A stretch of 64,000 nucleotides of DNA. Origin: Lucinisca nassula (Eukaryota > Mollusca > Bivalvia > Lucinida > Lucinidae). Position numbers and translations under genes: made by a program. Below are positions 33,114 to 51,330 of the stretch, in pieces (position 1 is the stretch's first letter; every line of letters starts with the position of its first letter). The notes below the pieces were generated by a model. That model was not told the DNA's origin and ran no database searches. It saw only the letters and a list, made by a program, of their open reading frames with translations. The stretch spans positions 113,726,527 to 113,790,526 of the forward strand of contig OY757017.1 of the NCBI GenBank assembly GCA_963580285.1, written 5' to 3'.

Positions 33114-33254
33114 ATATATATAGATTATGCTCCAACGGCGATATATTCATTGTCCGTATAGACATACCTCACTTTCTTCCGCTATATCATCAATTGGAGC
33201 ATATATTATTATACCACAATTTTCCGACGGCGATACAAACTATATCGCCGACTT
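33114..33254 (+). repeat. Polinton left terminal inverted repeat (141 bp)
   Basis: Starts ATATATATAGATTATGCTCC and ends TATATCGCCGACTT. No mismatch to the right TIR was found by eye. It contains two inverted motif pairs: ATGCTCCAA with TTGGAGCAT, and GGCGATA with TATCGCC. These are plausible integrase or terminal-protein recognition sites (inference). Confidence 0.95.
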
Positions 33255-33363
33255 GAGCATAAAAAAATTAAATTATCGCCCTCTCAATAACACCTGAATC
33301 ATCCTCAACACTCTATCATACACAATCTTGCAATTTCCTGCTTAAAACGTCGTCGTTGTGTGA
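33255..33363. other. Polinton leader fragment left of the nested retroelement
   Basis: About 110 bp of AT-rich Polinton sequence between the TIR and the truncated retroelement start. Nothing coding is seen. The original spacer to the first gene resumes near 35446. Confidence 0.6.
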
Positions 33364-34863
33364 CGGCTCCACTATGTTAACACGCTTAAGCAGGAGCTTG
33401 GTGGTACTAAGGCCTATGAACTTCAGCCTTTAGCTGAAGAGAGAGCTATAGTAGATAAACATGTTTGTCTTTCAGCCACCAAGTTTGCTGTGTGTGTTAA
33501 CGAAGGCCAAGACAAGCTTCCTACGCTATACTGGTTACCAAAACTTCATAAAAAACCTTACAAAGCACGGTTTATTGCAAATTCTAGCTCTTGCACTACC
33601 ACTGAACTTTCTAAATTATTAACTTCCTGTCTTACTGCTATTAAAACGCATGTAATTAAATATTGTGATAAAGTCTTTGAAAGATCAGGAAGAAATCTGT
33701 TTTGGTCTATAAAAAATTCGAATGATGTTTTAAATAAATTGAAATCTAGACAGTTTCGTGCTTCTAGTCTGTCTACCTACGATTTTTCCACTCTTTACAC
33801 TACACTTCCTCATAATTTTATAAAAGAAAAGCTTAATGATTTAATTGAATGGGCTTTTCACAGAGAAGATTCTCTCTATCTTGCATGTAATGTCAGAAAT
33901 GCATTTTTCACTTCTAAAGAGCATAAGAATTATACACTTTGGTCATGTCAGAAAGTGTGTGATGCCCTCACCTTTCTACTTGACAATATTTATATTAGAT
34001 TCGGTACTAAGTTATTTAGACAAATTGTGGGTATTCCGATGGGTACTAATTGCGCACCTCTTGTGGCTGATCTGTTCTTGTATTGTTATGAAAGAGACTT
34101 CATTTTGTCGCTTTCCATTGATAACCAATCTGAAATTATTGAAGCTTTTAGCTCTACTTCTAGATATTTAGATGATTTATTAAATATTGATAATACCTAT
34201 TTTGATGGTTTGATCAGTCAGATTTACCCCCTAGAACTTCAGTTAAATAAAGCAAATTCTTCTGATACCGAGGCCCCGTTTTTGGATTTACATCTATCTA
34301 TTGTAGATGGATTTGTTTCGTGCAAAATTTATGATAAACGCGATGACTTTGATTTTGAGATTGTAAATTTTCCTTTTTTGGATGGTGATGTTCCTCGTGC
34401 GCCATCCTATGGCGTTTATATTTCGCAATTAATTCGATTTGCTAGAGTGTGTAGTCATGTAACTGACTTCAACACTCGTAATAAATTATTAACGGCTAAA
34501 CTCCTTAATCAGGGTTATCGGTACCATAAACTACGCAAAGCCTTTTCAAAATTTTATAGACGCCATTCTGATTTAATTTCAAAATTCAATATTGGACTTA
34601 AATCTCTTCTGCAACAAGGTCTATCGGAACCCGAATTTTATGGTGACTTAGTATTTAAATTCAGAAAAATATATAACCGCAATGACTTCAGTACCCAATT
34701 TCGTAAAATCATTCTTCGATATAAAAAGATTGGGTACAACATGGATATTATACGACAGACTGCATGCATGGTAGTTAACCCAATCACGGTTGGCAACTTT
34801 GCTTCCCTCTTTAATTGCACGCCGGTGGGTCAGGCCTCAGATTCTATGACGGCTCCAACGTAA
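33364..34863 (+). CDS. Reverse transcriptase ORF of nested Penelope-like retroelement, 5'-truncated
   Basis: An open frame follows the TGA at 33361; the first 42 codons have no initiator, so the true start is lost. The encoded RT copies RNA into DNA. Visible motifs: LYWLPKLHK (template-grip region, 33526), YDFSTLYT with the first catalytic aspartate (33778), GIPMGTNCAPL (34030), and the catalytic YLDD box (34165), then PFLDLHLSI and SQLIRFARVC. The LPKLHK block and YxDD context resemble Penelope-like elements, although no GIY-YIG endonuclease follows the RT. The frame is intact to its stop. Codon use and base composition differ from the Polinton genes around it. A second, inverted fragment lies outside the Polinton at 29680-30508, showing it is an independent element. 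Confidence 0.85.
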   Translation, partial: RLHYVNTLKQELGGTKAYELQPLAEERAIVDKHVCLSATKFAVCVNEGQDKLPTLYWLPKLHKKPYKARFIANSSSCTTTELSKLLTSCLTAIKTHVIKYCDKVFERSGRNLFWSIKNSNDVLNKLKSRQFRASSLSTYDFSTLYTTLPHNFIKEKLNDLIEWAFHREDSLYLACNVRNAFFTSKEHKNYTLWSCQKVCDALTFLLDNIYIRFGTKLFRQIVGIPMGTNCAPLVADLFLYCYERDFILSLSIDNQSEIIEAFSSTSRYLDDLLNIDNTYFDGLISQIYPLELQLNKANSSDTEAPFLDLHLSIVDGFVSCKIYDKRDDFDFEIVNFPFLDGDVPRAPSYGVYISQLIRFARVCSHVTDFNTRNKLLTAKLLNQGYRYHKLRKAFSKFYRRHSDLISKFNIGLKSLLQQGLSEPEFYGDLVFKFRKIYNRNDFSTQFRKIILRYKKIGYNMDIIRQTACMVVNPITVGNFASLFNCTPVGQASDSMTAPT

Positions 34864-35445
34864 AGGCTTATTGAGAATTAGAGAGATCTAATTCAAGGTA
34901 ATGTTGGTTGGTGCCTGATGCTCTGTCTCTGGTCGGGCTCATCGGAGTCTAACTGTTGGTTTTCTTTTGCTCCAGCATTTCAGTGGTTTCTTGCTGTCGA
35001 GTCCTCACCGTTGTCTCACCTCTGTGGTTCTTTGATTTTTGTGTTCACGGAGATGTTGCACTGATGAGTTAGGAGGCCTTCATGCGGACTGAACAAATTA
35101 TTTGTCTAAATCGCGACGGAAGTAAGGGCGAGGATTGTGGCCACGTAAAATCGATTTAAGCCCCCCAGTGGAAATCTTCCACTGACCGTTCCAAGGCGGC
35201 TCTTCTGTGGCGATTTATTTTATGTTGTTGTTTGTTACTTACTGTGTGTATCACTTGTGTCTTTTAGTTTCGGATGACCATATGGCCATTTTGTGGGAAA
35301 GTAACTGTCCTTATGGCCTTCCTTTGTTTAGGTTTCCATTATGGTCTGGTCGCTTAATGTTTGTATTTCTTTCCCTTTGGTGTCTTTTATGGGTGGAGTA
35401 AGTTAATTGTATCAATTCCTGATCTTTGTTTTACTTCTACTTTTT
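34864..35445 (+). mobile_element. 3' untranslated region of nested RT element
   Basis: Shared with the inverted copy at 29680-30290. The right boundary (ACTTCTA, about 35443-35446) is where both copies stop matching. It includes a CTGATGAG (35061-35068) and a small AC-AAA/TTT-GT hairpin (35093-35105) arranged like part of a hammerhead ribozyme, but with a changed core. The element spans about 33364-35445. Confidence 0.75.
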
Positions 35446-35693
35446 ATAGAGTTAAAATATCTCTGTTTTTCTCTAAAATTCTTTCCACCACACTTATCAC
35501 AGATTTGATATTTTGCTGTAGTACCTTTACCACATTGCAAACATTTCACTACTTTACTTTTGTTATGTTTTATAATAAAATTATGAGCCTTGCAGTATAT
35601 AGAATGCTTTACTGATTTGTTTTTACATGGTTTATTTGAACCTAACGGCAACATAGCACATATATTTTGCATCTTTGCTTTTTCTATATCCAT
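35412..35693 (-). CDS. Small zinc-binding Polinton protein with retroelement-derived C-terminus
   Basis: 93 residues. Two cysteine clusters suggest metal binding: C13, C23 and C34 with H38 in the first half, and a CxxC-x(n)-CxxC zinc ribbon at residues 51-68 (CLQC..CDKC). The start is supported by the upstream AATAATAAAAATG context shared by other Polinton genes. It is divergent from polymerase B (51-bp gap). The final eight or nine residues are encoded by the 3' end of the nested retroelement, so the native C-terminus has been cut off or replaced. Function unknown; a nucleic-acid-binding role is a guess. Confidence 0.65.
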   Translation of the reverse strand: MDIEKAKMQNICAMLPLGSNKPCKNKSVKHSIYCKAHNFIIKHNKSKVVKCLQCGKGTTAKYQICDKCGGKNFREKQRYFNSIKSRSKTKIRN

Positions 35694-35744
35694 TTTTATT
35701 ATTAAATTTAAAAAAAATTTTTATAGTTTAAAAGAAAACAAAAA

Positions 35745-38700
35745 ATGAGTTCTGTAGAGAGACTAATACAATTGCATAGTGAAGGAAGAATCAGTGATGA
35801 GGCTTTAGACAAGGGTCTTAAATCCTTAGATATTGAGAAACAGAAGAGTGATGCACCACAACAAACTTCTGCATTAGATAATCTGCGTAAAAGACGTAGA
35901 AATAAAAAGATAAGAAAACGACAGCAACAAAATGCTGTTAAAACAAGTGAAAAAATTAATGATGAAGATACTAAAGAAGAGAAAAATGCTCTGAAACTGG
36001 TTGATAAACCATTATGCAATTACTTCAAAGCGTATGAAATAGATGCTCATAAATATAAAGACCCAAATATTTTGTTTAATGATAAAAAATCTGTCATTAT
36101 AGATAAAATTAATGAAAACATTAAAGAATACAATGGTATTAAATTTTCAATTGGGTTATCTATAAAGTTTTTTAAAGATGAACTTAATGGTGAAAGAAAA
36201 GAAGTTATCGGTGCATCACACGGAGAACAATGTGCAGTTCTTAATGAAAATAATTTAGATGAAAACTATAACAAACAAACAGCTTATATACAAACATGGA
36301 TTGAAAAATTCACAAATACCGCAACAGGTTTAGAAATTGACCATTGTATCAAACTCTATATTAACATAGCAAAATATGAACCACTCAAAGGTTCTTCATA
36401 TATTCCTCTTCCAAAAGTAATAGCAAACAAACAAGCAATAATTAATATGAAAAACAATGATAATAGATGTTTAGAATGGTCATTGAAATCTGCTTTATAT
36501 CCAGCAAAGAATAACTTAAATAATGTATATAGTTATAAAAAATGTCCTAATCTGAATATGGAAGGAATTGACTTTCCCACACCAATCTCACAAATACCAA
36601 AAGTTGAGAAACAAAACAATATAGCAATCAATGTTTATGGATATACAATCACAAAAAGACAGAGAAACTAACTGTATTTCCATATCATATTTCAAATCAA
36701 TCAAATGATAAAGAAAGAATTAACCTGCTTTTGATAACAGAAGTTGAAGAGGAAATTGATGATAATGAAGAAGGAGAAATAGATGAAAATTATAATCCAG
36801 ATGAAAAACCACAAAAGGAAACAAAATATCACTACTGTTGGATTAAAAGTCTAAATAGATTACTTCGTAATCAGAATAACAAACACGGAGCTACTTACTT
36901 TTGTGAAAGATGTCTTCACGGTTTTTCAAGAGAAGATTTACTAACCGAACATAAAGAAGACTGTGAAGGCATAAATAAATCTCCAATGCGAATAGAAATG
37001 CCATCAAAAGGTCTTATCAAGTTTAAAAACCATCAAAATCAAATGCCCGTTCCCTATGTCATTTATGCCGACTTTGAAAGTATTATCAAACCTAAAACAG
37101 AACAAAAAGGAGATAAATCAGAAATAACAAGCGAACACGAAGCGTGTGGATTCGGTTATCAAGTTGTTAGATATGATGGTAAAGCTAAAAAACCGGTAAT
37201 CTACAGAGGTGAAGATACAGCTGAAGTTTTTTTAAATCACTTAGAACGCGAAGTAAAAAATATTAACAACGTTTTTAAACATCCTAAAAAAATAATAAAA
37301 ATGACAGAACAGAACATACAAGATTATGAAGAGGCTACTCATTGTTGGATATGTGAAAAAGAAATTAATGAAAAGAATCCAAAAGTAAAAGACCACTGTC
37401 ATTTCACAGGAGAATATAGAGGACCAGCACACAAATCCTGTAATCTCAAACTTGCAATCAAACCATATAGAACCAAAATTCCAGTTATCTTCCACAACTT
37501 AAAAGGTTATGATAGCCATCTAATAATGCAGAAAATACACAAAGCATGTGGAAACATTACTTGTATTGCAAATAATTCAGAGAAATTCATCTCATTCAGT
37601 ATTGGACAACTGAAATTCTTAGACAGTTTTCAATTTATGGCTTCCTCTCTTGAAAAGTTGGTAGATGGAGCAATTGGTGTAAAGACAGAATGTGAAAAAT
37701 GTAAAGGTACAGAAGAAATAAACATCAATGAAAATTGGTTATTAACAGCAAAATGTAAAAAATGTCACAATACAAGATATAAAAAACTCAACAAATCAGA
37801 CTTACCATTAACTGTAAAACATACAACTAACTCACATCTTCTTGCTCGTAAAGGTATCTATCCATATGAATACATTGATAGGTTTGATAGATTTGATGAA
37901 ACACAACTACCACCCATAGACAAATTCTACAGCAGTCTTACAGATGAAAGTATCAAACAAAAAGACTATGAACACGCTCAAAAAGTATGGAAACAATTTA
38001 ACTGTAAAACACTTGGTGATTATCATGATTTATATCTCAAAACAGATGTTCTCTTACTTGCAGATGTTTTTCAAAAGTTTAGAGAAACCTGTATGAATAA
38101 CTATAAACTTGACCCTCTACATTACTACACTGCACCTGGTCTATCTTGGGATGCTCTTCTAAAATACACAGAAATAGAATTGCAACTTCTATCAGATTTG
38201 GATATGCATCTTTTCATTGAAAAAGGAATGAGAGGTGGAATAAGTATGGTTTCTAAAAGACACGCAAAAGCAAACAATAAATATGTCGCAGATTATAATC
38301 CAGATGAAGAAGACAATTACATAATGTATTTAGATGAAAATAATTTATATGGTCATTCAATGAGCCAACCACTTCCATTTGGTGGTTTCAAATGGATAAC
38401 TAATAAAGATTTAATAGATGGAAAACTTCCAAAATTACAAAAAGGTAAAGGAAGAATATATGAAGTAGATTTAGAATACCCCAAACATTTACATAAACTA
38501 CATAATGACTATCCACTTGCACCTGAAAAATTAGCAATTAAAAAAGAATGGTTATCCGACTATCAAAATGAACTAATTGAAAATAGTATGTTAAAAACAG
38601 AAAAACTTGTCCCCAATCTAATGGATAAGAAGAAATATGTAGTACATTACAAGAACTTGAGACTATACAAACAACTTGGTATGAAAATAACAAAAATACA

Positions 38701-39589
38701 CAGAATATTAGAATTTGATGAGAAACCTTGGATGGAACCTTACATACGTCTGAATACAGAATTACGTAAAAAAGCAAAGACTACATTTGAAAAAGATTTC
38801 TTTAAACTTATGAACAACTCAGTATTTGGCAAAACAATGGAAAACATACGTAAAAGAGTTGATATTAAATTAGTCAAAACAGATGGCAGTGAAAATGAAA
38901 AAATCCGCAAGATAATAGCCAAACCAAACTTCAATCGTAGAATAAAGTTCTCTAATGAGTTATCTGCAATTCAAGTGAATAAAACAAGATTAACTCTCAA
39001 TAAACCAATATATGTTGGCTTCTCTGTTCTAGATTTATCAAAACATCTCATGTATGATTGGTATTATAATACATTGAAAAAGAGGTACGGCGAAAACTGC
39101 ACCTTGTTGTACACCGACACAGACAGTTTATTAGTAGATATCAAAACCAAAGATGCTTACAAAGATATGTCTGAAATGAAAGATGAATATGATTTCTCCG
39201 ATTATCCAAAAGAACATCCACTATACGATGAAACAAACAAGAAGGTCATAGGTAAGATGAAGGATGAATGTGCTGGTGTTCCAATATCAGAATATATTGG
39301 TCTTCGTCCTAAATTATATTCAGTATTAAGAGCAGATGAACAAGTCATCAAAAAAGCGAAAGGAACAAAAAAATATGTAATCAAAAAACAAATCAATTTT
39401 GAAAACTATAGAGATGCATTATTCAACAAAAAGAAATACACACACTCAATGAACATGCTACGCTCAATGCATCACAACATATATGGATTAAAAGTAAATA
39501 AGACTACACTTTCTCCTTTAGACACAAAAAGATACATAACTGACGATGGCATTACGACATACGCGTATGGGTATCAGCCGGAACAATAA
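35745..39589 (+). pseudogene. Protein-primed type DNA polymerase B, one frameshift
   Basis: Replicates the linear element. The N-terminal part (35745-36671, 308 residues) has a lysine/arginine-rich stretch and the SYIPLPKVIANKQAIINMKN block seen before the exonuclease domain in Polinton polymerases. Near the A5 run at 36653-36657 the frame shifts by one base and continues to 39589 as a 952-residue frame. In the latter: C2HC finger (about 56-78), exonuclease I YADFES (112-117), an HNH-like zinc module (C205, C208, DHCH 221-224, C237), exonuclease II HNLKGYD (255-261), paired CxxC (321-345), exonuclease III YLKTD (435-439), motif A around D535 (LDENNLYG), motif B KLMNNSVFGKT (692-702) and motif C YTDTDS (794-799). 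All catalytic residues are present. The stop overlaps the integrase 3' end by 38 bp, tail to tail. The single shift may be an assembly error or early decay. Confidence 0.93.
36653..36661 (+). other. Frameshift point in polymerase B
   Basis: An A5 run followed by GACAG. Downstream homology-like reading continues in the -1 frame, consistent with loss of one base here. The codon phasing (ACA AAA AGA) does not form a standard slippery heptamer, so programmed frameshifting is unlikely. Confidence 0.8.
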
Positions 39590-40451
39590 GTAATTCCTCT
39601 TTGACAAACCCTCTCTTAGGTGCAGGAGATTTCAAATAATAAACTCTTATTCCCTGCGTTATAATATGATAGTCAATCTTATGAATATCAACAGACCATA
39701 CTGGGTCAGTAGCCCTTCTCTTTCCACCACCTTCTAATTCTCCAGGTTGATACAAATATCTAACATTTACATAAGGACAAATTTCAGCATCAACTTTTCT
39801 TGTTATAATTGGAGGAGGTTTTTTCGTCTCCTTATTTAATGCTTTAATAACATCAGATAATCTCTTAACCCATTCTCTGTTTCTTTTTTTAGTATCAATC
39901 TCTTTAGCATACTGATAACCAAACAATCTTTCTGCTAAGGTTCTATTAAATCTTTCTACTATTCCTTGGTCTCTGTGTATTTCTTTTCTACCTCTTCTTA
40001 TTTTGGTATTATGCTTTTCCATCAAAGTTGAAACGGAACTCATAAATTCTCTACCAGGGTCAACTTGCAATAGTTTAGGATACTTCAAATGTCTTTTATA
40101 AATCTTCTCAAAAGCATTTGCAACTTCTTTACTATCTTTCGACGTCAAAGGTTCGGCTTCTTTATATCTTGTTCCAACATCAACCACTGTCAATGCATAC
40201 TTGTATGTTTTTCTACCAATAGTGTCATGAGGTAAAAACAATAAATCAGCCTGATGAACTTCATTCTCTGCAGACACATCAAATTTTGGTCTTATTATTC
40301 TCTTAGGTGCAGGTAAATATATTTGCCAAATTGCTTGTTTCTTTAAGAACTCTAATGCTTGTTTCTGACTAACCTTTGCTTCTTTTGCTAATTTACTAAC
40401 TGCTGAGTGTCCTTTCCAGAAACCTTTTGGACTATAGTATATCTTCTCCAT
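39552..40451 (-). CDS. Retrovirus-type (RVE) integrase
   Basis: Joins the element ends to target DNA, producing the short target duplication. 299 residues: an N-terminal helical region with AKEAKVSQKQALEFLKKQ (22-39), then the RNase H-like core with catalytic D69 (HQADLLFLP), D131 (QVDPGREF) and E166 (GIVERFNRTL), about 34 residues between the last two as in D,D35E enzymes. The C-terminal part (230-299) has a PVWSVDIHKI..YYLKSPAPKRGFVKEELL block resembling the SH3/chromo-like tail of Polinton integrases. No HHCC finger is visible at the N-terminus. It is head-to-head with the 113-residue gene at 40488, 36 bp apart. It appears intact. Confidence 0.93.
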   Translation of the reverse strand: MEKIYYSPKGFWKGHSAVSKLAKEAKVSQKQALEFLKKQAIWQIYLPAPKRIIRPKFDVSAENEVHQADLLFLPHDTIGRKTYKYALTVVDVGTRYKEAEPLTSKDSKEVANAFEKIYKRHLKYPKLLQVDPGREFMSSVSTLMEKHNTKIRRGRKEIHRDQGIVERFNRTLAERLFGYQYAKEIDTKKRNREWVKRLSDVIKALNKETKKPPPIITRKVDAEICPYVNVRYLYQPGELEGGGKRRATDPVWSVDIHKIDYHIITQGIRVYYLKSPAPKRGFVKEELLIVPADTHTRMS

Positions 40452-40487: not shown

Positions 40488-40829
40488 ATGTCAAACAACA
40501 ATATTCAAAATATCTCAACTGATGAATTTGAAGCGTTGTTAAAGGAACAAAGTCAATTTGACACAAAGAAATGGACTGATTTAGAAATCAACAACATTTA
40601 TACAATCACTGACTACAGAGAAATTAACACAGACAATGGTGTGAGTGTAATTTTAACTCTCAAAGACAACGGTGAAGTATGGAGTCCTGCACATCTCACA
40701 AAGAAGATAGAAGGTAAAGAACCACCATTTTATGTAAGACCACTTGGTTTGAAACCATGTAAGAATAATAAAAAAAATAAATATCATGCTTATGATTTAG
40801 TTTTTCCAAAGAAAGAATTACATGCATAA
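40488..40829 (+). CDS. Small Polinton protein, possible OB-fold (ssDNA-binding?)
   Basis: 113 residues. No membrane segment. The predicted pattern is several short beta strands: IYTITDYREIN, GVSVILTLKDNG, EVWSPAHLTKKI, PFYVRPLGLK, YHAYDLVFP. The G-x-x-IILTL-x-D-x-G-x-VW-x-P arrangement recalls OB-fold DNA-binding proteins, but there is no diagnostic motif, so this is inference. Start context ACATAAAAAATG. It is the only plus-strand gene in an otherwise minus-strand block from 39552 to 44594, next to the integrase. Confidence 0.7.
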   Translation: MSNNNIQNISTDEFEALLKEQSQFDTKKWTDLEINNIYTITDYREINTDNGVSVILTLKDNGEVWSPAHLTKKIEGKEPPFYVRPLGLKPCKNNKKNKYHAYDLVFPKKELHA

Positions 40830-40857: not shown

Positions 40858-41292
40858 CTACATCAACTTCCAAGCAACAAATCCTGTCAATGCCATACCA
40901 CCAACAACAAATGCAATCTCTCTATTTTTCTGGTCTTCTGATGGAGTGTAAAAATCATTTAATGTAGGTTTTTGTGGTAATGGTGTGGATAAATTATCTG
41001 GCAATTGTTTTCCTGTAATATAGTAATACTGTCTCATAGCAGTATCAGCATCACTGAACTCATTCAAAGCATGATGTTCCTTCTTCAGTTGTTCGTTAAT
41101 AAAATCCAATCTTTCTGTTCTCTTCTCATTCCACGCAGTTGTTGCTGATTCTAATTGTTCCATCGCTTTATCATGCCTCTTTCTCTCTTCGTCACTATTG
41201 CTACCCATATGTGAAAATAAATAATTACTACCTGAAAAGGCTAAGGCGTTTGTAATTGCTCCTCCAACCATTAATGCTACTGCACTTGCCAT
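40858..41292 (-). CDS. Conserved Polinton membrane protein, 144 residues
   Basis: An N-terminal hydrophobic glycine/alanine-rich segment (about 5-27) and a C-terminal hydrophobic segment (126-143, FVVGGMALTGFVAWKL) flank a charged helical middle (35-80, with EERKRHDKAMEQLE and RLDFINEQLKKEH). The LNDFYTPSEDQKNREIAF block precedes the second segment. I recognise it as a recurring companion in this Polinton lineage but know no function. Its place between integrase and the capsid genes suggests a minor virion or membrane-remodelling role (inference). Start context TATATAAAAATG. Confidence 0.8.
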   Translation of the reverse strand: MASAVALMVGGAITNALAFSGSNYLFSHMGSNSDEERKRHDKAMEQLESATTAWNEKRTERLDFINEQLKKEHHALNEFSDADTAMRQYYYITGKQLPDNLSTPLPQKPTLNDFYTPSEDQKNREIAFVVGGMALTGFVAWKLM

Positions 41293-41589: not shown

Positions 41590-41964
41590 TTAATTAAATT
41601 CAAATGGGTCAATTTCTTTTTGCATATGAGTCTCTACAGGAGGTGTATAAGTCTGAATTGGTTTATTACTAGTTGATTTGTACATATACAATCCTATTCC
41701 AACAACTCCAATTGTTATACATAATGGTATATAATTTTTGTATATATTTATATTCTGTGAATTGTTTGTTTGCACATCATCATCATCTCTTGTTATAGAT
41801 TTTAATTCCATGTTTTCTTTCTTTATAGTTTCAGCCTCCTTTCTTCTTAATTCTGCATTTCTTTTTCTTGCTTCTGCACCTTTCTTACCAGCAGATACTC
41901 GTCTTGGGTCTTTTGTTTTAACAGTTTCATTAACTTCACTCATCGTTTCATTAACTTCACTCAT
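41590..41964 (-). CDS. Basic, single-pass membrane protein, 124 residues
   Basis: The N-terminus is a seven-residue unit repeated twice (MSEVNET), from a 21-bp tandem duplication, so initiation could be at 41964 or 41943; the first has the A-rich context. Residues 18-50 are highly basic with DPRRVSAGKKGAEARKRNAE, similar in style to KGG-type nucleic-acid-binding segments. A membrane segment follows at about 80-96 (YIPLCITIGVVGIGLYMY), then a short tail. The first 8 bases overlap the preceding gene. Packaging or DNA condensation is possible but unproven. Confidence 0.78.
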   Translation of the reverse strand: MSEVNETMSEVNETVKTKDPRRVSAGKKGAEARKRNAELRRKEAETIKKENMELKSITRDDDDVQTNNSQNINIYKNYIPLCITIGVVGIGLYMYKSTSNKPIQTYTPPVETHMQKEIDPFEFN

Positions 41965-42433
41965 CTTTTTCTAAGGAAATATTTTCTTTTTTATTAAAAT
42001 CAATATGTCTTGCTGTTGTTAGCATTGCAGTTAATGGAGCAAGATACATTCCATATCTATAGTACAATTCACAACATGAACTTGTCAAAGCGTGATTGAT
42101 AAAAGGGTCTTCCTCTAAGTCTTGTATCAGTTTAGGTGGATTAACAACATTGAAATACTTTGATACACCCATCACGTATAAGCTAATGAAAGAATTACCC
42201 AATGTCTTAGTCATACTTGCTCCCAATCTTGCTTCATATCTGCAGTAAAGTTTGTTTATTTGTTCTGCTGTCATTGTATCAATGTCTGATAGTTGTAAGT
42301 CTTTACCAAGATACTGCTTACTACCACCACCAGCAACAATGGCTGATAATCGCTCACGTTTTGTTTCTTGTTCATTATTTTCTACATAAGTGCTTTCACA
42401 TTCAATGTCTTGTAATAATTCTTCAGCATTCAT
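41957..42433 (-). CDS. Conserved Polinton protein, about 158 residues
   Basis: The start is placed at MNAEELLQDIE (ATG at 42433) because it follows the AAAATAAAAATG context shared by the other genes. A longer frame to 42562 would add a hydrophobic stretch of low-complexity AT-rich origin. The middle has a YLGKDLQLSDIDTMTAEQINKLYCRYEARLG block (rough residues 40-70), then a mildly hydrophobic C-terminal half ending near DFNKKENISLEKDE. The motif recurs in related Polintons. Function unknown. Confidence 0.75.
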   Translation of the reverse strand: MNAEELLQDIECESTYVENNEQETKRERLSAIVAGGGSKQYLGKDLQLSDIDTMTAEQINKLYCRYEARLGASMTKTLGNSFISLYVMGVSKYFNVVNPPKLIQDLEEDPFINHALTSSCCELYYRYGMYLAPLTAMLTTARHIDFNKKENISLEKDE

Positions 42434-42677
42434 TTTTATTTTATGTAATTTATTTTTTATTTTTAAAAAATAAAACATCGCATATCCGACTATTAATAAG
42501 ATTGCAGTGTTTGTTATGATTATTGATAAGATTGCAGTGATTGATAATATTTCTAACAGCATTGTTTTTTAGTATTGCTATTTTACTTAAAACATTACTT
42601 AAGATTTGCTATAGCATTACTTAAGATTTTGCTATAGCATTGCATAAACATTACTTAATCATTGCTAAAAAAAATAA
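42434..42677. other. AT-rich spacer upstream of the 158-residue gene
   Basis: Contains repeated ATTACTTAAGATTTGCTATAG-like 20-25-bp units at 42575-42665 (GCATTACTTA motif at least four times). The largest gap among the Polinton genes on this side, so it may hold regulatory sequence. Confidence 0.5.
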
Positions 42678-43307
42678 TCAATCAACCAACCAATAATCAG
42701 TAGGCTGGTCAGTCTTCAAAATTAACTTACGATGCTTCTTTTTTTTCAGTTCTTCTTTTATTCTCTGTCGTTCTTCCAAAGTAGGAATAACATCATTCTC
42801 TCTTAAACAATTTTCAAAACTATCTCTATCTTTTGTGTAGAACATGCATAGCCATTTTGTTTGTTCTCTTAAATCTTTTAACACAGAATTATATCTCTGC
42901 GAAATAACCCACACTGATTGTTCTGCATGCCTACCAGAAAATGCTAATTCTGATAACATATCTTTTTTCTTTGTTAGTTCTTTCGTTGCACTGCAATCAT
43001 CAATAATGTAGAGAGTAGAATGACCAGCATATTTATTAAAGAACATTCTTAGTAGTTCTTGTAGTTTTTCTTCTCCATTAACAACAGGATTAACAATTGT
43101 TATATTTTTTGTTTTAGGCTTTCTAACATCACCAATCCACCCACGATTTTTATAAGCCTTGTTCCATTGAATGGTTGGGCAAAGTATAACAATATGTTTA
43201 AATACTTGACGATATTCCTCTTCCAAAAGGTCAAGGACAAACTCTGTTTTCCCGCATCCAGTTTGACCACATATAATAGCACAATGAGGATATTTTGGTA
43301 GTTCCAT
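42678..43307 (-). CDS. A32/FtsK-HerA-type genome-packaging ATPase
   Basis: Motor that would pump the linear genome into the capsid. 209 residues with Walker A GQTGCGKT (14-21), Walker B LYIIDD (99-104) and a downstream VISQRYNSV sensor-like motif (134-142), the order and spacing of A32-like packaging ATPases. The C-terminus is lysine-rich and ends DYWLVD. Start context AAATAAAAATG. Directly downstream in the same direction as the major capsid gene (21-bp gap), as expected of a morphogenesis module. Intact. Confidence 0.92.
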   Translation of the reverse strand: MELPKYPHCAIICGQTGCGKTEFVLDLLEEEYRQVFKHIVILCPTIQWNKAYKNRGWIGDVRKPKTKNITIVNPVVNGEEKLQELLRMFFNKYAGHSTLYIIDDCSATKELTKKKDMLSELAFSGRHAEQSVWVISQRYNSVLKDLREQTKWLCMFYTKDRDSFENCLRENDVIPTLEERQRIKEELKKKKHRKLILKTDQPTDYWLVD

Positions 43308-43328
43308 TTTTATTTGTAAAAAAAAATA

Positions 43329-44594
43329 TTAATAACTGACTTCTTTAAATCTACCATCTTCAAAGTTGATTTGTGCATCTTGTATAACAAACAAATAAAG
43401 ATTGATTGGTTCATCTGCTCCTGCTTCTTTCGTTATTTGTATTGTGATACCTTCTGATGCATTTTCAATTCTTCTTCCAGAACCATGAAGTGTATTATCA
43501 TCAGTTGAACGTAAATCCAACCATAAAGCATACCTGTTCGTTAGATATTTCTCTATTGTTGTATCAGTAAAATATAAATCTTTAATGACCATACTTGTTG
43601 CTTTGTTTCTTTTTGAATTCAAAGCAAAGAATTTATTTATTTCGTCCCAGTGTTGGTGGGACTTCATTCCTTGACTATACAATTGATTCGGAATCCCTTC
43701 TATTGTCATTTCCACTTTTGTAATTTCTGGATTATAATATTCTTCTGTGCTGGCCCTTTCAGGATCTTCGAATAGCATAAGAATTCCTTTCATACTTCTT
43801 GCAGGAACATTTAGATTGATATTCCATAGTGTATCAGATTTGTTTTTAGTTATTTTTCTGTGTCTTAGTATTCTGTCATACAAAATAACCATTTTACCAT
43901 CAACTTGCTGTCTTATTTGTCTTGCTAATTCAGTATCAGAAACAATATCAAATTCCAAACAAATATTTTTGATTGTATAAGATGAAGTTGCATCGCCTGA
44001 TTTAATTACTTTATTATAATCATTGAATGTAAGTTCATATTCAAGTCTATCTCCTAATCCAGCTTGATAAAAAGGCATATGGGTTTCCAATAATTCAAAA
44101 TCAAGTGGGATGCAAAACCTGTTTCCATATGCTTTTGCGATGGCTTGATCTTCTTTATCTGCTGTTGCGTTTCCTGCACCCACTCTATGTTTCAACATGT
44201 TCTCTTTGCCAATGCCTTGGTATGCCATATTTACACGTTCTGTAATAGTCTTCCATAAATCAATATAACAATGATAGATGTCACTATCATCAATGGACAT
44301 AACTTCATTTCCACTAATTCTAATTGTTGTTTTCTTAATTATTGCTCTTCCTATGTTTTGAAATATAGTTGCATTTGCATCTTTAGAGTTTAGTTCAATT
44401 TCAAATGCTAATCTGACTGTTCCGGGAACAATAACATCATTACCACTTAGATTAGGAAATCTCACTAACAATTGTTGATTTTGGTCAATAGTTGATGGAT
44501 TATTGGTTATTACTACACTTTGGCGGATGCCTCTCACACCTCGTGGTTCTCTTAATTTTCTGTAAGGGTTTAGTTTATCTCCGTAGGCTGACAT
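43329..44594 (-). CDS. Putative major capsid protein (jelly-roll type)
   Basis: 421 residues from ATG 44594 (MSAYGDKLNPY); a longer upstream frame is dropped because the A-rich start context (TTTTAAAAAAAATG) sits here and upstream residues are low-complexity. Mostly predicted beta structure: LLVRFPNLSGNDVIVPGTVRLAFEI near residues 40-65, NIGRAIIKKTTIRISGNEV (85-105), YELTFNDYNKVI mid-protein and IQITKEAGADEPINLYLFVIQDAQINF at the C-terminus. Position beside the packaging ATPase and divergent from the membrane protein supports a capsid role. It is shorter than many Polinton double-jelly-roll capsid proteins, so structure prediction is needed to tell double from single jelly roll. Confidence 0.78.
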   Translation of the reverse strand: MSAYGDKLNPYRKLREPRGVRGIRQSVVITNNPSTIDQNQQLLVRFPNLSGNDVIVPGTVRLAFEIELNSKDANATIFQNIGRAIIKKTTIRISGNEVMSIDDSDIYHCYIDLWKTITERVNMAYQGIGKENMLKHRVGAGNATADKEDQAIAKAYGNRFCIPLDFELLETHMPFYQAGLGDRLEYELTFNDYNKVIKSGDATSSYTIKNICLEFDIVSDTELARQIRQQVDGKMVILYDRILRHRKITKNKSDTLWNINLNVPARSMKGILMLFEDPERASTEEYYNPEITKVEMTIEGIPNQLYSQGMKSHQHWDEINKFFALNSKRNKATSMVIKDLYFTDTTIEKYLTNRYALWLDLRSTDDNTLHGSGRRIENASEGITIQITKEAGADEPINLYLFVIQDAQINFEDGRFKEVSY

Positions 44595-44638: not shown

Positions 44639-45985
44639 ATGGCTGAATATGAAAATCCTGAGTATGATAGGGAGGATTATGATGAAGAAGCAGAAACATC
44701 TTTTACAGATGAAGAAGAGTTTCAGAGAACATTAAATAGTCAGTTTGCTGGTTTGAATGATTTAACTGGTAATGATAGGAAAACTCTGCGTAATAGCATA
44801 GGTCAAAAAATGATAGATAGATTTTACGAAAGGAATGAAGAACCTAAACGTAAAATCAAAGGTTTGTCTCTCAAGAAAGATGATTTTGGAAGACCAATGT
44901 TATATGTTAAAGATGAAGGTGGAAAGGATATTGCATTAACATATTATCGTTCCAATGCACCAGATGAAATAGCAACATTTTTATCATTTAATACTTTACA
45001 AAGGAAATATGGTGTTGATTTTGTTAGGAATGTATTAGGTGTAGATGATTTTAAACCATCTGCTACAAGACTTAGAGAAGGTAGAGCCGAGTTTACAACT
45101 TTAATAGAAAACCATTTGAGAGAGACACAATCTGATTTATTATCAGAAAAATTCAAGAATCTTGATAATGATGTATCATCACAACAAGAAGCACAAGAAC
45201 TATTAGAAACTGCAAATAATGCAGAAACATCTGTGAAAACATTAGAGACATCATTCATTGAAAATGTTAATAGTGAAGCAGGAACACAAACAGATTGGAC
45301 AAAAAGAGAGATTGATGGAATAGCAAATGCAATGACAACAGTCAAAGAAGAGATAGCAAATGAATTGGCTAAACTAAATGAAACAAATAAAGAGTTAGCA
45401 AAAGAAAATACCAAATTAGAACAAGCCAAAGCAGACAATGATGAATTTCAAATAGAAAGGATAAGTAGTCGAATCAAAGAGTTAGAAAGTGAGAGAAGTG
45501 CAAGATTGGAAGTTATTAATGTTAATAAAGATAAACTACGTAGTCAGGTAAATAGAATCAAGGAAACTATAAACAAAGTATTAAAAGAAGACACTACATT
45601 GGGTGAGAGAATTAGAACATTATTCAGAGAACAAGGAATTACAATAGTTAGTGTTTTAACTGCTTTTGGAATGATAATTGCTGTTATTGTTGAGGCTGTT
45701 ATTCCTACAACTGGTGGTGGAACTACACCAAAGCCTCCTCCTAAAGATGGTGTAAAAGATTGGGTTAAGAAACAATTATCAAATCTTGGTAAATTACTTT
45801 CTACCCTTGCAGGAAAAGTAGCAGCAGCATTACCAGGTATTATTGGTTCTATTGTGTCTTGGTTGTTGTCTTCTGCGGGTAAAGTTGTTAATTGGTTTGG
45901 AGAACATCTATGGGCATTAGTTGTATTGGTTGCTGGATTGTTATATGCATCTGCAAGAGAGTTTATAAGAAAAAAAAGAACTTAA
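44639..45985 (+). CDS. Coiled-coil membrane protein of Polinton, 448 residues
   Basis: Acidic N-terminus (1-30). A folded region to about 190, then a long coiled coil with heptad-like KEEIANELAKLNETNKELAK..KLEQAK..RISSRIKELESE (about 240-325). Membrane segment 1 at 333-356 (ITIVSVLTAFGMIIAVIVEA), a Gly/Pro-rich hinge (TTGGGTTPKPPPK), an amphipathic stretch (382-420, LLSTLAGKVAAALPG..IVSWLL) and a final membrane segment (424-437) with a basic tail. The amphipathic-plus-membrane design resembles a membrane-penetration or minor virion protein (inference). Divergent from the capsid gene and tail-to-tail with the next gene. Confidence 0.82.
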   Translation: MAEYENPEYDREDYDEEAETSFTDEEEFQRTLNSQFAGLNDLTGNDRKTLRNSIGQKMIDRFYERNEEPKRKIKGLSLKKDDFGRPMLYVKDEGGKDIALTYYRSNAPDEIATFLSFNTLQRKYGVDFVRNVLGVDDFKPSATRLREGRAEFTTLIENHLRETQSDLLSEKFKNLDNDVSSQQEAQELLETANNAETSVKTLETSFIENVNSEAGTQTDWTKREIDGIANAMTTVKEEIANELAKLNETNKELAKENTKLEQAKADNDEFQIERISSRIKELESERSARLEVINVNKDKLRSQVNRIKETINKVLKEDTTLGERIRTLFREQGITIVSVLTAFGMIIAVIVEAVIPTTGGGTTPKPPPKDGVKDWVKKQLSNLGKLLSTLAGKVAAALPGIIGSIVSWLLSSAGKVVNWFGEHLWALVVLVAGLLYASAREFIRKKRT

Positions 45986-47260
45986 TAAATTTCATACATA
46001 ATTAATAGTCCAATTGCAATACTACCAACTATTAATGCTGTTTTGTTGTCTTCGTGTTGTATTGCTTCTTTTTTTTTCAACGGGTTCTTGTAGAGATTTG
46101 ATTTTTGTTTCCTGATGTAATGGTTCTGGTAGAGATTTCTTTGTTTCCTGATGTTTTGGTTCTGGTAGAGATTTCTTTGTTGGTGTGCCTTGTATAGTTG
46201 CAGGTTGTGTAGTAGGTGCAACAGGTTTAACATTTACATCACTATTGAAACCAAGTGTTTGATTTTCTGTTGCAATTACAATTTTATTATTATATCCAGC
46301 GATAGTGCCAATTTGTAAAATCATATCACTGGGAGACATATATAATCCAATACCATAAACAAAATCTACTTTACTTCTTGCATATTTGAGTGTGTTTTGA
46401 TATCTTTGTATTTGACTTGGTAAATCAACTGGACTATTAATAGCGTCTTCAATGTTAGCAAGAAATTGTTTCTGAGCATCAAATCCTGTGCCTATTTTTA
46501 GTATTTCTACACGTGTTTGAGATTGTGCTCCTAATAGAGCCCATACAAACATTCTAATACTTTCGTTAATTCGTTCAATACCTGTTTTTGTTAAGCCTTC
46601 TGATTTGTCTAATATAAACATTGTCCAGGCGTCACTTATATCTACTGTATGTTCTATTTTATCATTTGGATTAAAGAATGGACCTTCACTTCGATGTTCT
46701 TGTCTATATTTTCCACTTGGTTTAAAATATTGTGTGTAACTCCCTAGACCACTGCATTTAGAACTACTTTCTAATTTTTGACGCCAATCTGTATTAGGTG
46801 AAACATTGAATTCATTGCATAACTTTTGATAGGTTGCTTTGTCGTATGGGTTTTTGTAATAACAAAATGATTCATCTGTTGGTAAAGGTGTTTTAAGTTC
46901 TTTCAAAATACGAGCAATACAATAATAAACATGAAATGTATATACTGTTTTAGTTAGTCCTGAAGTGTTTTGCAAATGGTCTTGATAACTTACTCCACAT
47001 CCTGCAGTGGCACACCAGACAGCAAAATTTAATTGACATTGCCACCAGTCAAATGATGAATGATGCCATGTATTCCACGGTTCATTGGTGTGTAATGTTG
47101 GATTTTGATAGTTTTGAAATAAGTCGGGAAACGTTACTGGAAAATGGTCGTCTTTATTAACATAAATCGTTTGTTTTATAAGTTCAATATTCTTTTCGGT
47201 ATATTTAGTATTGGGGTTATATAATGCATTGGGATTGTACTTGAATTCTTTAGATATCAT
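45982..47260 (-). pseudogene. Conserved 412-residue Polinton protein, C-terminal anchor displaced by a frameshift
   Basis: The main frame runs 47260-46022. The N-terminal half contains a tryptophan/cysteine-rich block WHHSSFDWWQCQLNFAVWC.. (about 66-90, with GCGVSYQDHL) and a helical region with FHVYYCIARILKELKTPLP. The later part has DAWTMFILDKSEGLTKTGIERINESIR..WALLGAQSQTR and a conserved KVDFVYGIGLYMSPSDM block. Residues about 355-395 hold three degenerate KSLPEPxHQET units, a likely stalk. A T9 run at 46069-46077 then shifts the frame: the following 25 codons in the other frame encode a membrane segment (ALIVGSIAIGLLIMYEIY) and stop at 45982. One-base indel in the run is the simplest reading. 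Function unknown; structural role inferred from position. Confidence 0.8.
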
Positions 47261-47291: not shown

Positions 47292-47933
47292 ATGTATCAT
47301 ACAATTTCGAATATTGACAAGACAATAAACTTGCAACAATACATTGATAACAGAGATGGGAATAAACGTATTGGTTTGAAATCTATAACATATGGTGTTG
47401 GATGGTATAATGTTGTTGATGAATATTTGCAGAAGACTGGAGAGAGACCTCATAAGATTATAGATGGTTATTATAGTTTCCAACAAATAGCAGATTTATT
47501 TCAAAGTAATAATATTACATTATCTGTAAATGAAACAAATGGAATTGCTTCTTTAATCACACCGGATGAATTGAAGATAAACAAGGGCTTAAAACAAATG
47601 TTGGGGTTTGGAAATAAGCGAAAGTTTGCTGTTAATGAAACTCATTATGGTGAGAGAGCTGCAGATTTTGCTGTTTATAAATCATTGTATGTTCATTTGG
47701 AACAGATTAATACTTCAAATAATTATTTAGATGGTATGCCGAGTACTGTGTTGGCTGTTGTTCCAGTGGAAAATAAAGAGTTTGGAGAGATAACAACAGT
47801 GAGATTTGAGCATCCAGAATATAAGTGTTTGGTGAATGATGCTATAGCAGAATTGAAATTAGAAATCAGGGATGAAAATAACAACAAGGCAATTAATCAT
47901 CTACCAATTAATTGCGTTTTGGAAATTATATAA
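47292..47933 (+). CDS. Penton-like minor capsid candidate, 213 residues
   Basis: No membrane segment. The C-terminal two thirds look like a beta-sandwich: KSLYVHLEQINTSNNYLDG, STVLAVVPV, EFGEITTVRFEHPEYKCLV and IAELKLEIRDENNNKAINH, the last matching the final strands typical of single-jelly-roll virion proteins in this lineage. An N-terminal part precedes it with GYYSFQQIADLFQSNNITLS. Tightly followed by the fibre-like gene (14-bp gap). Assignment as penton is inference from fold pattern and neighbours. Confidence 0.65.
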   Translation: MYHTISNIDKTINLQQYIDNRDGNKRIGLKSITYGVGWYNVVDEYLQKTGERPHKIIDGYYSFQQIADLFQSNNITLSVNETNGIASLITPDELKINKGLKQMLGFGNKRKFAVNETHYGERAADFAVYKSLYVHLEQINTSNNYLDGMPSTVLAVVPVENKEFGEITTVRFEHPEYKCLVNDAIAELKLEIRDENNNKAINHLPINCVLEII

Positions 47934-47947
47934 TTATAATAAAAAAA

Positions 47948-48501
47948 TGAGTATATTTGGTGCTAAGAGAAAACACGTAGATGCATTGGGGCTGAAACAA
48001 GAAATATTTAATATGAGAAGTCAAGCATTTACACAAATAAATACATTGAATGATAGACATACAGGACTTCAAAATAGAGTTCGGGATATACATGTCAATC
48101 ATCAGTTGTTATACAATAAAGTTGAAAATATGTCAGACAAAAAATTGATAAGCATCTGTGCAGAGAGTAAAGGATCATTGCAGGAGAATGAAGTGTTTAG
48201 TTTTGGTAATGGTGGTAGAGAGGTAGGTTGTGGATATGTGATGAACTTTCCAGGTCAAATATTGGGTGTGGGGTTATCGAGTAAAAGAACAAAAGGTGAT
48301 GTATCTGTTGTTGTTTCTATAAATGGAAATCCACAAGCAGGATATGGTATATTATTGAATAATATTTTAAGGAAACACGATAACTTTGATACACCGTTAA
48401 AGGTTGAAGCTGGTGATGCAATTGATTTTGTTTGCCAGACTAATAATGCTACATGTGTTAATACTGTGGCTTCGATGATAATTGAATTATTTATTGAATA
48501 A
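47948..48501 (+). CDS. Spike/fibre-like protein, 184 residues
   Basis: Starts at ATG 47948 (MSIFGAKRKHVDALG) behind ATAATAAAAAA. The upstream frame start overlapping the penton-like gene is not used. Residues 15-65 are helical and coiled-coil-like (LKQEIFNMRSQAFTQINTLN..LQNRVRDIH). Residues 70-184 are beta-rich with glycine turns (FGNGGREVGCGYVMNFPGQI, GDVSVVVSINGNPQAGYGI, GDAIDFVCQTNNATCVNTVA). Coiled coil followed by a compact beta head is the plan of trimeric attachment fibres (inference). No membrane segment. Confidence 0.65.
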
Positions 48502-48528: not shown

Positions 48529-49104
48529 ATGAAACAACCTACTGCACCGCTATATCCAGAGTTGCCTGTTGAAGATGGGCAAAATTATAGATTACAGAAG
48601 ATATCTGAGATAGAGAAGACATTAATTAATGAGAGAGATGTGAGAAAAGCATTATACAAGAAATATAAGCGTGGAATAAATATTACTGACGGTGTTGATA
48701 CAGGTTTGATATCAACAAGTGTTATTTTGGCAGGTGTTGGATTAACTGTTCCAATTATGTTGCCTTTAGAGTTTGTTGCAATTGTGTGTGGAAGTTTGGG
48801 TATTTTTGTAAAGTTAGTAAGACGTAGATTACATACAAAAGCACAGAAACATTATGAGATTAAAACTATTGCTGATAGTAAGTTGAATAGTATAAAGGAT
48901 TTGATTTCTAAGGCTTTGACAGACGGACAGATATCTGAGAATGAATTTAAACTTGTGTTGGATGAGTTGGACAAATATAATAAAATTAAAGACAATATAC
49001 ATTCAAAACAAACAGGATTGAGTGAAAGTGAGAGAAAGAAACTTATTGAGGAAGGCAAGGCTCAAGCAAAGAATGAAATGAAAAAAAAGATAGAAAATGC
49101 TTGA
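48529..49104 (+). CDS. Polinton membrane protein with helical tail, 191 residues
   Basis: Proline-rich start (KQPTAPLYPELPVEDG), a helical segment (25-60), a long hydrophobic hairpin (about 62-105: GLISTSVILAGVGLTVPIML and LEFVAIVCGSLGIFVKLV), then a charged helical tail (120-191) with KLVLDELDKYNKIKDNI and a lysine-rich end. Start context TCAAGAAAAAAATG. Last gene before the gene-poor right arm. Function unknown. Confidence 0.78.
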   Translation: MKQPTAPLYPELPVEDGQNYRLQKISEIEKTLINERDVRKALYKKYKRGINITDGVDTGLISTSVILAGVGLTVPIMLPLEFVAIVCGSLGIFVKLVRRRLHTKAQKHYEIKTIADSKLNSIKDLISKALTDGQISENEFKLVLDELDKYNKIKDNIHSKQTGLSESERKKLIEEGKAQAKNEMKKKIENA

Positions 49105-50025: not shown

Positions 50026-50029
50026 CTGG

Positions 50030-50300: not shown

Positions 50301-50328
50301 TCACCATACATGGCATCCAGCAAGCCAT

Positions 50329-50690
50329 TTACCCTTAAACAGACAGGTGAACGTCATACTCAGAGACAGACAACCATGCTCTAACAGACACGACCAATTA
50401 CTATAAAAAATCGAAATGTATATATACTAACACTTTTTACAAATCACAAACTTATGGTTTTAAAATTTGCATATTTTCAAGGGAATCAATCCAGATATAA
50501 ACGGGGAGATATTTACCCTTAAACAGACAGATGAACGTCATACGAAGGGACAGACAACCGTTCATTAACAGACACAACCAAATATTTAATGTGAGCCTCT
50601 AATATTCCAATCACTTTTGAAAATTATTGAAAAAAATGCATTAAAAAATTTGCATATTTTCAAGGGAAGCAATCCAGTTTAATCTAAAAA
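50329..50690 (+). repeat. Two-copy direct repeat (about 180 bp)
   Basis: ATTTACCCTTAAACAGACAG..GAACGTCATAC and AATTTGCATATTTTCAAGGG occur in both halves (50329-50508 and 50509-50690) with moderate divergence. Confidence 0.8.
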
Positions 50691-50699
50691 TAAAAAGGG

Positions 50700-50865
50700 A
50701 TTTCCAGGAAAAACTAAAAATAGAAAATAGATATGGGGATTCCTAGAAAGCTAAAAATAGATATGGGGGATTCCTAGAAAGCTTAAACTATGGGGATTCC
50801 TAGAAAGCTAAAATAGTTATGGAGGATTCCTAGGAAGCTAAAAATAGATATGGGGATTTTTATGA
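50700..50865 (+). repeat. Minisatellite, about 30-bp unit
   Basis: Five imperfect units with GATATGGGGATTCCTAGAAA and GCTAAAAATA. No coding. Confidence 0.85.
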
Positions 50866-51189
50866 AAAATGGTTGAGGCGGGAAATTTAAATTTTACAAT
50901 GGATATCCCGGCGGTGGTTCATACTCAGAAAAACTGCTACAGCAGTTGAACACGTACTTTTTATGTTCTTTTGAATGACAGCAAGAGCCTCTTGCCTCCC
51001 CTGTTCTATTAGCTGTTTTTTTTTGGTCACTGTTTATCTCTGACTTTTTTTCTTTGATGTCATGTTTTAAAGTGATATATTTATCTAGCTCACACAAAAC
51101 CATTGTTGTTTTGTTCTGCGGTAAAATATATATGTGGTAAGATGTGTCTATATATAGATAGTACTGGTTTTTGGGTATGTCGCCGTTGG

Positions 51190-51330
51190 AAGTCGGCGAT
51201 ATAGTTTGTATCGCCGTCGGAAAATTGTGGTATAATAATATATGCTCCAATTGATGATATAGCGGAAGAAAGTGAGGTATGTCTATACGGACAATGAATA
51301 TATCGCCGTTGGAGCATAATCTATATATAT
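51190..51330 (-). repeat. Polinton right terminal inverted repeat (141 bp)
   Basis: Reverse complement of 33114-33254 with no mismatch seen. Just inside it, at 51181-51190, an extra CGCCGTTGGA repeats the outer-end motif. Confidence 0.95.

What the first reader, a model, noticed from the sequence alone, without database searches (positions are those of the whole stretch)
33114..51330. Near-complete Polinton/adintovirus-like element with exact ends
Sequence shows 141-bp TIRs with no mismatch found, a target duplication, and polymerase B, integrase, packaging ATPase and capsid-type genes plus nine small or uncharacterised proteins. Identical TIRs and 13 of 15 open genes point to a recent insertion or an active lineage in a bivalve. 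Polinton hallmarks (polymerase B, RVE integrase, A32-type ATPase, jelly-roll capsid) are established knowledge; recency is inference.
Basis: partly seen in the sequence, partly recalled or inferred. Interest (0 to 1): 0.88.

Follow-up and report, generated by a model that had tools for sequence, protein, structure and literature searches.

The report
Young, gene-swapping Polinton-like element family
This 18,217-base virus-like element has perfectly matching ends and 39 other two-ended relatives in the same (probably clam) genome, some of which have evidently swapped a gene, and it likely spread recently with its own predicted polymerase, integrase and capsid, although in this copy the predicted polymerase gene is split between two frames and a likely retrotransposon fragment is inserted.

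Summary
Window 33114-51330 is a polinton-like element: 141-bp inverted ends without mismatch, a 5-bp target duplication (ATTAA), family-B polymerase, RVE integrase, A32-type packaging ATPase and a capsid protein that looks like a double jelly roll. The host genome (2.93 Gb) holds 40 two-ended copies with this end on 17 contigs, and at least 150 ATPase genes without stops. The nearest copy differs by about 0.1% over 6 kb, so activity is recent. This copy is itself damaged: the polymerase lies in two frames, and a 2.1-kb reverse-transcriptase fragment, absent from 4 of 4 sister copies examined, sits inside it. The target duplication is 5 bp (27 of 36 pairs exact) and the ends are (AT)4AG, not the 6 bp and AG/AGT ends published for vertebrate Mavericks. 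The capsid gene and two others are under purifying selection (dN/dS 0.14-0.16). One 552-bp gene has two alleles, 43-49 differences apart, found on interchangeable backbones, so lineages recombine. Particle formation is inferred; no maturation protease was found; adintovirus membership could not be settled. New variant of a known kind.

The parts
33109..33113 (.). left target duplication ATTAA
33114..33254 (+). left terminal inverted repeat, 141 bp, begins (AT)4AG
33351..35441 (+). nested retroelement fragment (start uncertain by about 3 bp) with a 499-aa stop-to-stop frame 33364-34863, Penelope-like by recalled motifs; not an element gene
   Evidence: absent from 4 of 4 sister copies; its core found in at least 40 places; RVT_1 E 0.084
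35412..35693 (-). 93-aa frame, zinc-ribbon-like; overlaps the insert edge
   Evidence: weak matches, all below cut-off
35727..39589 (+). family-B DNA polymerase, lying in two overlapping frames (35727-36671 and 36608-39589) in this copy
   Evidence: sister stretches
39552..40451 (-). RVE integrase, 299 aa
   Evidence: PF00665 E 6.9e-8 above cut-off; sister copies
40488..40829 (+). 113-aa protein, function unknown
40858..41292 (-). 144-aa protein, function unknown
41590..41964 (-). 124-aa protein, function unknown
41957..42562 (-). 201-aa protein, function unknown
42678..43307 (-). A32/FtsK-type packaging ATPase, 209 aa
   Evidence: PF04665 E 2.5e-14 above cut-off; 150 copies without stops
43329..44594 (-). 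major capsid protein candidate, 421 aa (a longer frame starts at 44699; the homologs seen are about 421 aa)
44639..45985 (+). 448-aa protein, coiled-coil and membrane-like stretches by eye; three alleles among copies
46022..47260 (-). 412-aa protein, function unknown, variable C-terminal part
47292..47933 (+). 213-aa protein, penton candidate (inferred from size, order and recalled features)
   Evidence: no database match
47947..48501 (+). 184-aa protein, fibre candidate (inferred); two interchangeable alleles
   Evidence: no database match
48529..49104 (+). 191-aa protein, function unknown; several alleles
51190..51330 (-). right terminal inverted repeat, 141 bp
51331..51335 (.). right target duplication ATTAA

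Best explanation
This is a polinton-like element with matching ends, a 5-bp target duplication, many near-identical sister copies and evident gene swapping among them, and it was likely inserted as linear DNA by its own predicted RVE integrase during a recent burst of a virus-like lineage. Inferred cycle: the family-B polymerase copies the linear element from protein-primed ends, where the (AT)4 repeat would let the start slide back; the ATPase packs the DNA into double-jelly-roll capsids; capsid and neighbouring genes stay under selection because particles are needed to reach new cells or hosts; different lineages meet in one nucleus and recombine, exchanging the fibre-candidate gene as a cassette; the integrase cuts the target with a 5-base stagger. 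This copy was later or concurrently damaged: the polymerase lies in two frames and a retroelement fragment landed near the left end. Shown: anatomy, ends, copies, selection on several genes, recombination. Inferred: priming, packaging, particles, route between hosts.
For: Ends and target duplication. Gene set. 40 inverted pairs and 9 single ends with the outer 42 bp, 22 of 40 pairs spanning 15.9-16.6 kb. At least 150 ATPase genes, each printed at 99-100% identity without stops (150 scored of 2502 candidates). Nearest copy: 0 of 3627, 1 of 2958, 5 of 1628 and 7 of 6050 mismatches in four stretches, the first and last overlapping. Purifying selection in 14 copies chosen by their ends: MCP 0.14, fibre candidate 0.145, 191-aa gene 0.155. 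Two fibre alleles on interchangeable backbones.
Against: No particle or transcript was seen. The capsid model is poor (pLDDT 51) and its fold matches have TM-scores of only 0.2-0.3; Capsid_N matches lie below the curated cut-off in the window's protein. Penton and fibre names have no database support. No maturation protease in the frames scanned. dN/dS is 0.50, 0.56 and 0.77 for the 448-aa, 412-aa and penton-candidate genes (the last rests on at most 7 differences). Recombination could be conversion between integrated copies instead of co-infection. 9 of 36 pairs lack an exact adjacent 5-bp duplication. No relatives in IMG/VR.
Confidence: 0.74

Rival explanations
1. It is a pure self-synthesizing transposon: copies spread inside germ-line nuclei with polymerase and integrase alone, and the capsid genes are passengers without a present role.
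For: Many copies in one genome; no relatives in the viral contig collection; no protease found.
Against: MCP, fibre candidate and 191-aa gene show dN/dS 0.14-0.16 among copies not chosen for coding, and MCP frames are open over at least 95% in 12 of 14 sister copies; passengers should drift. Selection could, however, date from earlier exogenous ancestors of each lineage.
Confidence: 0.17
2. It is a fossil provirus whose identical ends are kept alike by gene conversion, so that matching ends do not show youth.
For: The 133-bp end is identical in copies whose 448-aa genes differ by dS up to 0.20, so ends may be exchanged or constrained.
Against: Near-identity extends far beyond the ends: 7 of 6050 and 0 of 3627 mismatches to the nearest copy, and 0.05-0.16% among seven copies of another lineage; 27 of 36 pairs keep exact 5-bp duplications.
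Confidence: 0.06
3. The reverse transcriptase inside the ends is an element gene, making this a reverse-transcribing hybrid polinton.
For: A 499-aa frame with a weak RVT_1 match lies inside the inverted ends.
Against: The stretch is absent from 4 of 4 sister copies with both sides aligned, and its core occurs in at least 39 other places, four pairs of them 4158 bp apart in tandem.
Confidence: 0.01

Closest known systems
Polintons / Mavericks of animals (vertebrate Mavericks, PMC8097293; Polinton capsid proteins, PMC4028283; passages seen)
   Same: Size class, inverted ends, family-B polymerase with many animal homologs, RVE integrase, packaging ATPase, capsid gene, purifying selection on core genes; Mavericks are reported in all mollusc genomes surveyed in PMC10294476 (passage).
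   Different: 5-bp instead of 6-bp duplication; (AT)4AG ends instead of (AG)3 or (AGT)2; no protease found; different gene order (integrase next to the polymerase end, several strand switches); more two-ended copies than the maximum of 38 intact elements reported in a vertebrate, although mine are counted by ends, not by intact genes.
Adintoviruses (definition in passages of PMC11071296)
   Same: Polymerase, RVE integrase, hexon-like capsid; a capsid entry labelled Adintovirus sp. is rank 10 in the viral fold search.
   Different: No adintovirus capsid sequence was at hand for the defining reciprocal BLAST; OTU-like domain and integrase chromodomain were not detected by Pfam.
Polinton-like viruses and mavirus-type virophages (PMC12220804, passages)
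   Same: Capsid model matches mavirus capsid protein among the best; PLVs are said to have 5-6 bp duplications at times and to expand in bursts.
   Different: Animal host and a polymerase whose homologs are from animals where named, with an Endonuclease VII insert.
Ginger2/TDD transposons (PMC2836005, passages)
   Same: Related integrase class; TDD-4 and TDD-5 make 5-bp duplications.
   Different: They lack polymerase, ATPase and capsid genes (recalled).

Membership tests
Polinton/Maverick | family-B DNA polymerase | tested here: met
   Homologs: by my count 70 of the 120 listed carry PF03175, and four Elysia crispata rows are named DNA polymerase; the 12 closest and the window's own piece have no reported PF03175 match. 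Conserved motif columns, recalled, in 9 sequences.
Polinton/Maverick | protein-primed replication | not testable with these tools
   inferred from the polymerase type and repeat ends
Polinton/Maverick | RVE integrase | tested here: met
   PF00665, E 6.9e-8, 33.1 bits against 32.6
Polinton/Maverick | packaging ATPase | tested here: met
   PF04665, E 2.5e-14
Polinton/Maverick | double-jelly-roll major capsid protein | tested here: inconclusive
   Capsid_N in 22 of 22 homologs, best E 5.2e-5; all 50 listed PDB fold matches are capsid proteins of this class or poxvirus D13, but the model has pLDDT 51 and TM-scores are about 0.2-0.3
Polinton/Maverick | single-jelly-roll penton | tested here: inconclusive
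   213-aa candidate without database match
Polinton/Maverick | adenovirus-like maturation protease | tested here: inconclusive
   none among the frames scanned with Pfam; identifiable in 74% of Polintons according to PMC4028283 (passage)
Polinton/Maverick | terminal inverted repeats | tested here: met
   141 of 141
Polinton/Maverick | 6-bp target duplication | tested here: not met
   27 of 36 pairs exactly 5 bp, 1 of 36 6 bp, 5 of 36 5 bp with one or two extra bases, 3 of 36 none
Polinton/Maverick | AG or AGT repeat ends (vertebrate Mavericks) | tested here: not met
   ATATATAT in all 32 ends (window included) and all 40 ends; AG follows inside in all but the 4 ends that read GT
Adintovirus | hexon recognizable by reciprocal BLAST | not testable with these tools
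   no adintovirus hexon sequence was at hand
Adintovirus | OTU-like domain in the polymerase N-terminal part | tested here: inconclusive
   no match for the N-terminal piece in Pfam or NCBIfam; PMC11071308 finds the domain by structure (passages)
Adintovirus | integrase with C-terminal chromodomain | tested here: inconclusive
   Pfam lists rve and a weak DUF6140 only
Penelope-like element (nested fragment) | reverse transcriptase of the Penelope type, tandem copies | tested here: inconclusive
   RVT_1 E 0.084; four tandem pairs at 4158 bp; the type rests on recalled motifs

The most novel reading that the evidence does not exclude
A still-infectious virus lineage of molluscs: a separate polinton clade with (AT)n slide-back ends and a 5-base integrase stagger, whose genomes meet in co-infected cells, swap a fibre gene like a serotype cassette, and reinsert in bursts that have seeded at least 40, perhaps hundreds, of copies in one host genome.
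Probability: 0.35. Interest if true: 0.78.

Novelty: new variant of a known kind. Interest (0 to 1): 0.52.

Why it matters
Polintons are believed to be viruses, but PMC8097293 notes that particles of Mavericks have not been observed. A host with many near-identical copies, a capsid gene under selection and recombination between lineages makes the question directly testable in living animals by looking for protected DNA and capsids. The 5-bp duplication and (AT)4 ends show that the textbook end signature is not universal, so surveys that filter on 6-bp duplications and AG ends would miss this family.

Tried and rejected
Rejected: the reverse transcriptase as an element gene. Rejected: AG at 33122 as the element end with ATATAT as a 6-bp duplication; sister copies with unrelated flanks place the end at 33114. 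Led nowhere: viral contig scans with the ATPase, polymerase and capsid alignment and a bacterial/archaeal contig scan with the capsid alignment; solved-structure sequence searches for capsid profile, polymerase, fibre, penton, 412-aa, ATPase and integrase proteins, with no hit below E 0.04; the first capsid model (pLDDT 48). PHROGs and NCBIfam gave only endonuclease VII for the polymerase and a terminase match for the ATPase beyond weak hits. Never answered: a search for paralogous empty sites, a count with the polymerase region, and a count with the penton candidate.

Rows dropped before counts: of 17 loci, L084 and L092 (second guesses at the orientation of two copies) and L085 (no match at the chosen offset) were left out, so 14 of 15 sister copies entered; frames covering under 95% were left out of dN/dS. 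The 28 loci were picked by ATPase score, which biases the ATPase ratio of 0.094 downwards; the 14 were picked by end identity only. Four of the 40 pairs were not checked for duplications.
Full report
What is there. The element spans 33114-51330 (18,217 bp), of which about 2.09 kb is a nested retroelement fragment. Its ends are inverted repeats of 141 bp without mismatch: 133 bp identical plus ATATATAT outside on both sides. The flanking duplication is ATTAA. GC content is 30-34% in the 2-kb bins from 36 to 50 kb, against 37-43% in the bins to the left and 35-42% to the right.

Genes. Polymerase: the longer piece has an Endonuclease_7 domain (E 5e-6). Its own DNA_pol_B_2 match is not reported, nor that of the 12 closest homologs, but by my count 70 of the 120 listed homologs (50-96% identical) carry PF03175, and four Elysia crispata rows are named DNA polymerase. 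In an alignment of 9 sequences the columns that I recall as exonuclease and polymerase motifs of family B are invariant or nearly so. Integrase PF00665 and ATPase PF04665 pass their cut-offs. The 421-aa protein has 4062 homologs at E<=0.001 among the 7998 candidates scored; of the 120 listed, one is named Mactra antiquata and one comes from a Thiodiazotropha bin. Pfam Capsid_N matches 22 of 22 aligned members, best E 5e-5; for the window's own protein it is below the cut-off. The AlphaFold2 model is poor (pLDDT 51), yet all 50 listed PDB matches are capsid proteins of iridovirus, mavirus, PBCV-1 and EhV or poxvirus D13, and the viral library gives mostly capsid proteins of the same class among its named top hits, along with some unnamed or otherwise named entries; TM-scores are only 0.16-0.30. 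Penton and fibre are my names for candidates by size, order and recalled sequence features; database searches gave nothing significant.

Sister copies. The window lies in a 2.93-Gb assembly of 696 contigs. ATPase search: 150 scored of 2502 candidates, all printed at 99-100% identity and without stops. End search: 40 of 464 candidates scored; 40 matches are 133 of 133 and two further matches are partial. The outer 42 bp, up to 2 mismatches, occur 89 times (47 and 42 by strand; reversed control 0), forming 40 inverted pairs and 9 single ends; 22 of 40 pairs span 15.9-16.6 kb, the full range is 14.4-25.0 kb, and pairs lie on 17 contigs. Flanks differ among the copies that I read, so these are separate insertions.

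End signature. Of 36 pairs examined (16 with the window, 20; 4 of the 40 not examined): 27 have an exact 5-bp duplication right at (AT)4, 1 has 6 bp, 5 have a 5-bp duplication offset by one or two extra bases, 3 have none. Chance would give about 0.04 exact 5-bp matches. Vertebrate Mavericks have 6-bp duplications and (AG)3 or (AGT)2 ends, thought to serve slide-back priming (PMC8097293, passages); some polinton-like viruses are said to have 5-6 bp (PMC12220804, passages). Stagger and end sequence set this family apart, while the repeat character of the ends fits the same priming idea.

This copy is damaged. Its polymerase lies in two overlapping frames, 35727-36671 and 36608-39589. Of 9 sister stretches, 7 have the two pieces in one frame as far as the stretch reaches (only 18-43 residues into the second piece in most, 154 and 572 in two); in the other two the first piece itself is split, and one of these does not reach the second piece. 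So copies without this break exist; I did not check the whole gene in any copy. The reverse-transcriptase stretch is absent from 4 of 4 sister copies, which run from 33347 or 33350 straight to 35442. Its 1901-bp core occurs in at least 40 places (40 scored of 1712 candidates), all printed at 100% identity, four pairs of them 4158 bp apart. It is thus a young retroelement of its own, Penelope-like by recalled motifs.

Youth. Against the nearest copy, separate stretches differ by 0 of 3627, 1 of 2958 and 5 of 1628 bases and 7 of 6050 (overlaps the first), apart from a few gaps. Seven copies of another lineage differ by 0.05-0.16% over 6.1 kb. Other lineages are further off (about 1-6%). I give no date, as no rate was tested.

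Selection. In 14 sister copies chosen only for their ends, frames open over at least 95%: MCP 12, 448-aa 13, 412-aa 7 (six others at 90%, one at 73%), penton candidate 14, fibre candidate 14, 191-aa 12 of 14. Mean dN/dS, same order: 0.14, 0.50, 0.56, 0.77, 0.145, 0.155. The penton value rests on at most 7 differences in 639 bases. Fisher tests between alleles: fibre candidate 1e-11, 191-aa 4e-11, 448-aa 1e-4 (with site counts). In the 28 loci picked by ATPase score, the ATPase was full length in 28 of 28, MCP full and ungapped in 23 of 28, two of these with a stop. Integrase: matched in 5 of 5 stretches, one frame over the whole protein in 3, cut by the end of the stretch in 1, split in 1.

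Recombination. The fibre candidate has two alleles: 1-7 differences within one (five copies), up to 7 within the other (nine copies and the window), 43-49 between them in 552 bases; in one comparison 28 of 113 silent and 14 of 439 replacement sites differ. One copy (L079) differs from the window by 64 of 6050 bases, 47 of them in the three 200-bp bins 47901-48500. Across copies all four combinations of fibre allele and window-type or other 448-aa allele occur. Recurrent mutation is not a plausible source; exchange between lineages is. Whether it happens between replicating genomes or by conversion between integrated copies is open.

Host. Cytochrome oxidase I on contig 696 has an unnamed 92% match; the best named matches are the clams Novaculina, Ensis and Laternula at 65-67%, but an annelid and insects score nearly as well. 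With Mactra among the named capsid homologs, a bivalve is likely, not proven.

Literature. The searches listed no paper whose title or abstract start describes a bivalve polinton family with these features; most subscription papers are not held, Starrett et al. on adintoviruses was not held, and I saw only passages of the papers cited. Mavericks as such are reported across mollusc genomes (PMC10294476, passage). Largest number of intact elements in a vertebrate: 38 (PMC8097293, passage); my 40 pairs are counted by ends, not by intact genes.

Noticed in passing
33351-35441 and G000-wide: A retroelement family with at least 40 copies printed as 100% identical over 1901 bp, four pairs in tandem at 4158 bp: a second, very young mobile family in the same genome.
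   Followed up: partly
32895-32998 and 51614-51707: An inverted pair of host repeats (88-89% complementary, with a recurring CCCCGACAC motif) lies just outside the element on both sides; the element seems to have landed in an older palindromic repeat.
   Followed up: partly
P0002: A bacterial genome bin named Candidatus Thiodiazotropha endolucinida holds a 95% identical capsid protein on a 1.9-kb contig, probably host DNA left in a symbiont bin.
   Followed up: no
L100 (contig 696): Host cytochrome oxidase I is unusually divergent: at most 67% identical to any named species listed, 92% to one unnamed contig.
   Followed up: no
G000 C9:105006212-105006335 and C2:176502174-176502260: Two copies carry a second, partial copy of the end repeat directly inside the first, a possible trace of end replication slips or end exchange.
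   Followed up: no
50327-50846: The right non-coding part holds 74-bp, 33-bp and 37-bp direct repeats, two of them spaced 183-184 bp.
   Followed up: no
L137-L140 (G000 C4:142.6 Mb, C20:97.5 Mb): A minor end variant reads (AT)4GT instead of (AT)4AG at both ends.
   Followed up: no
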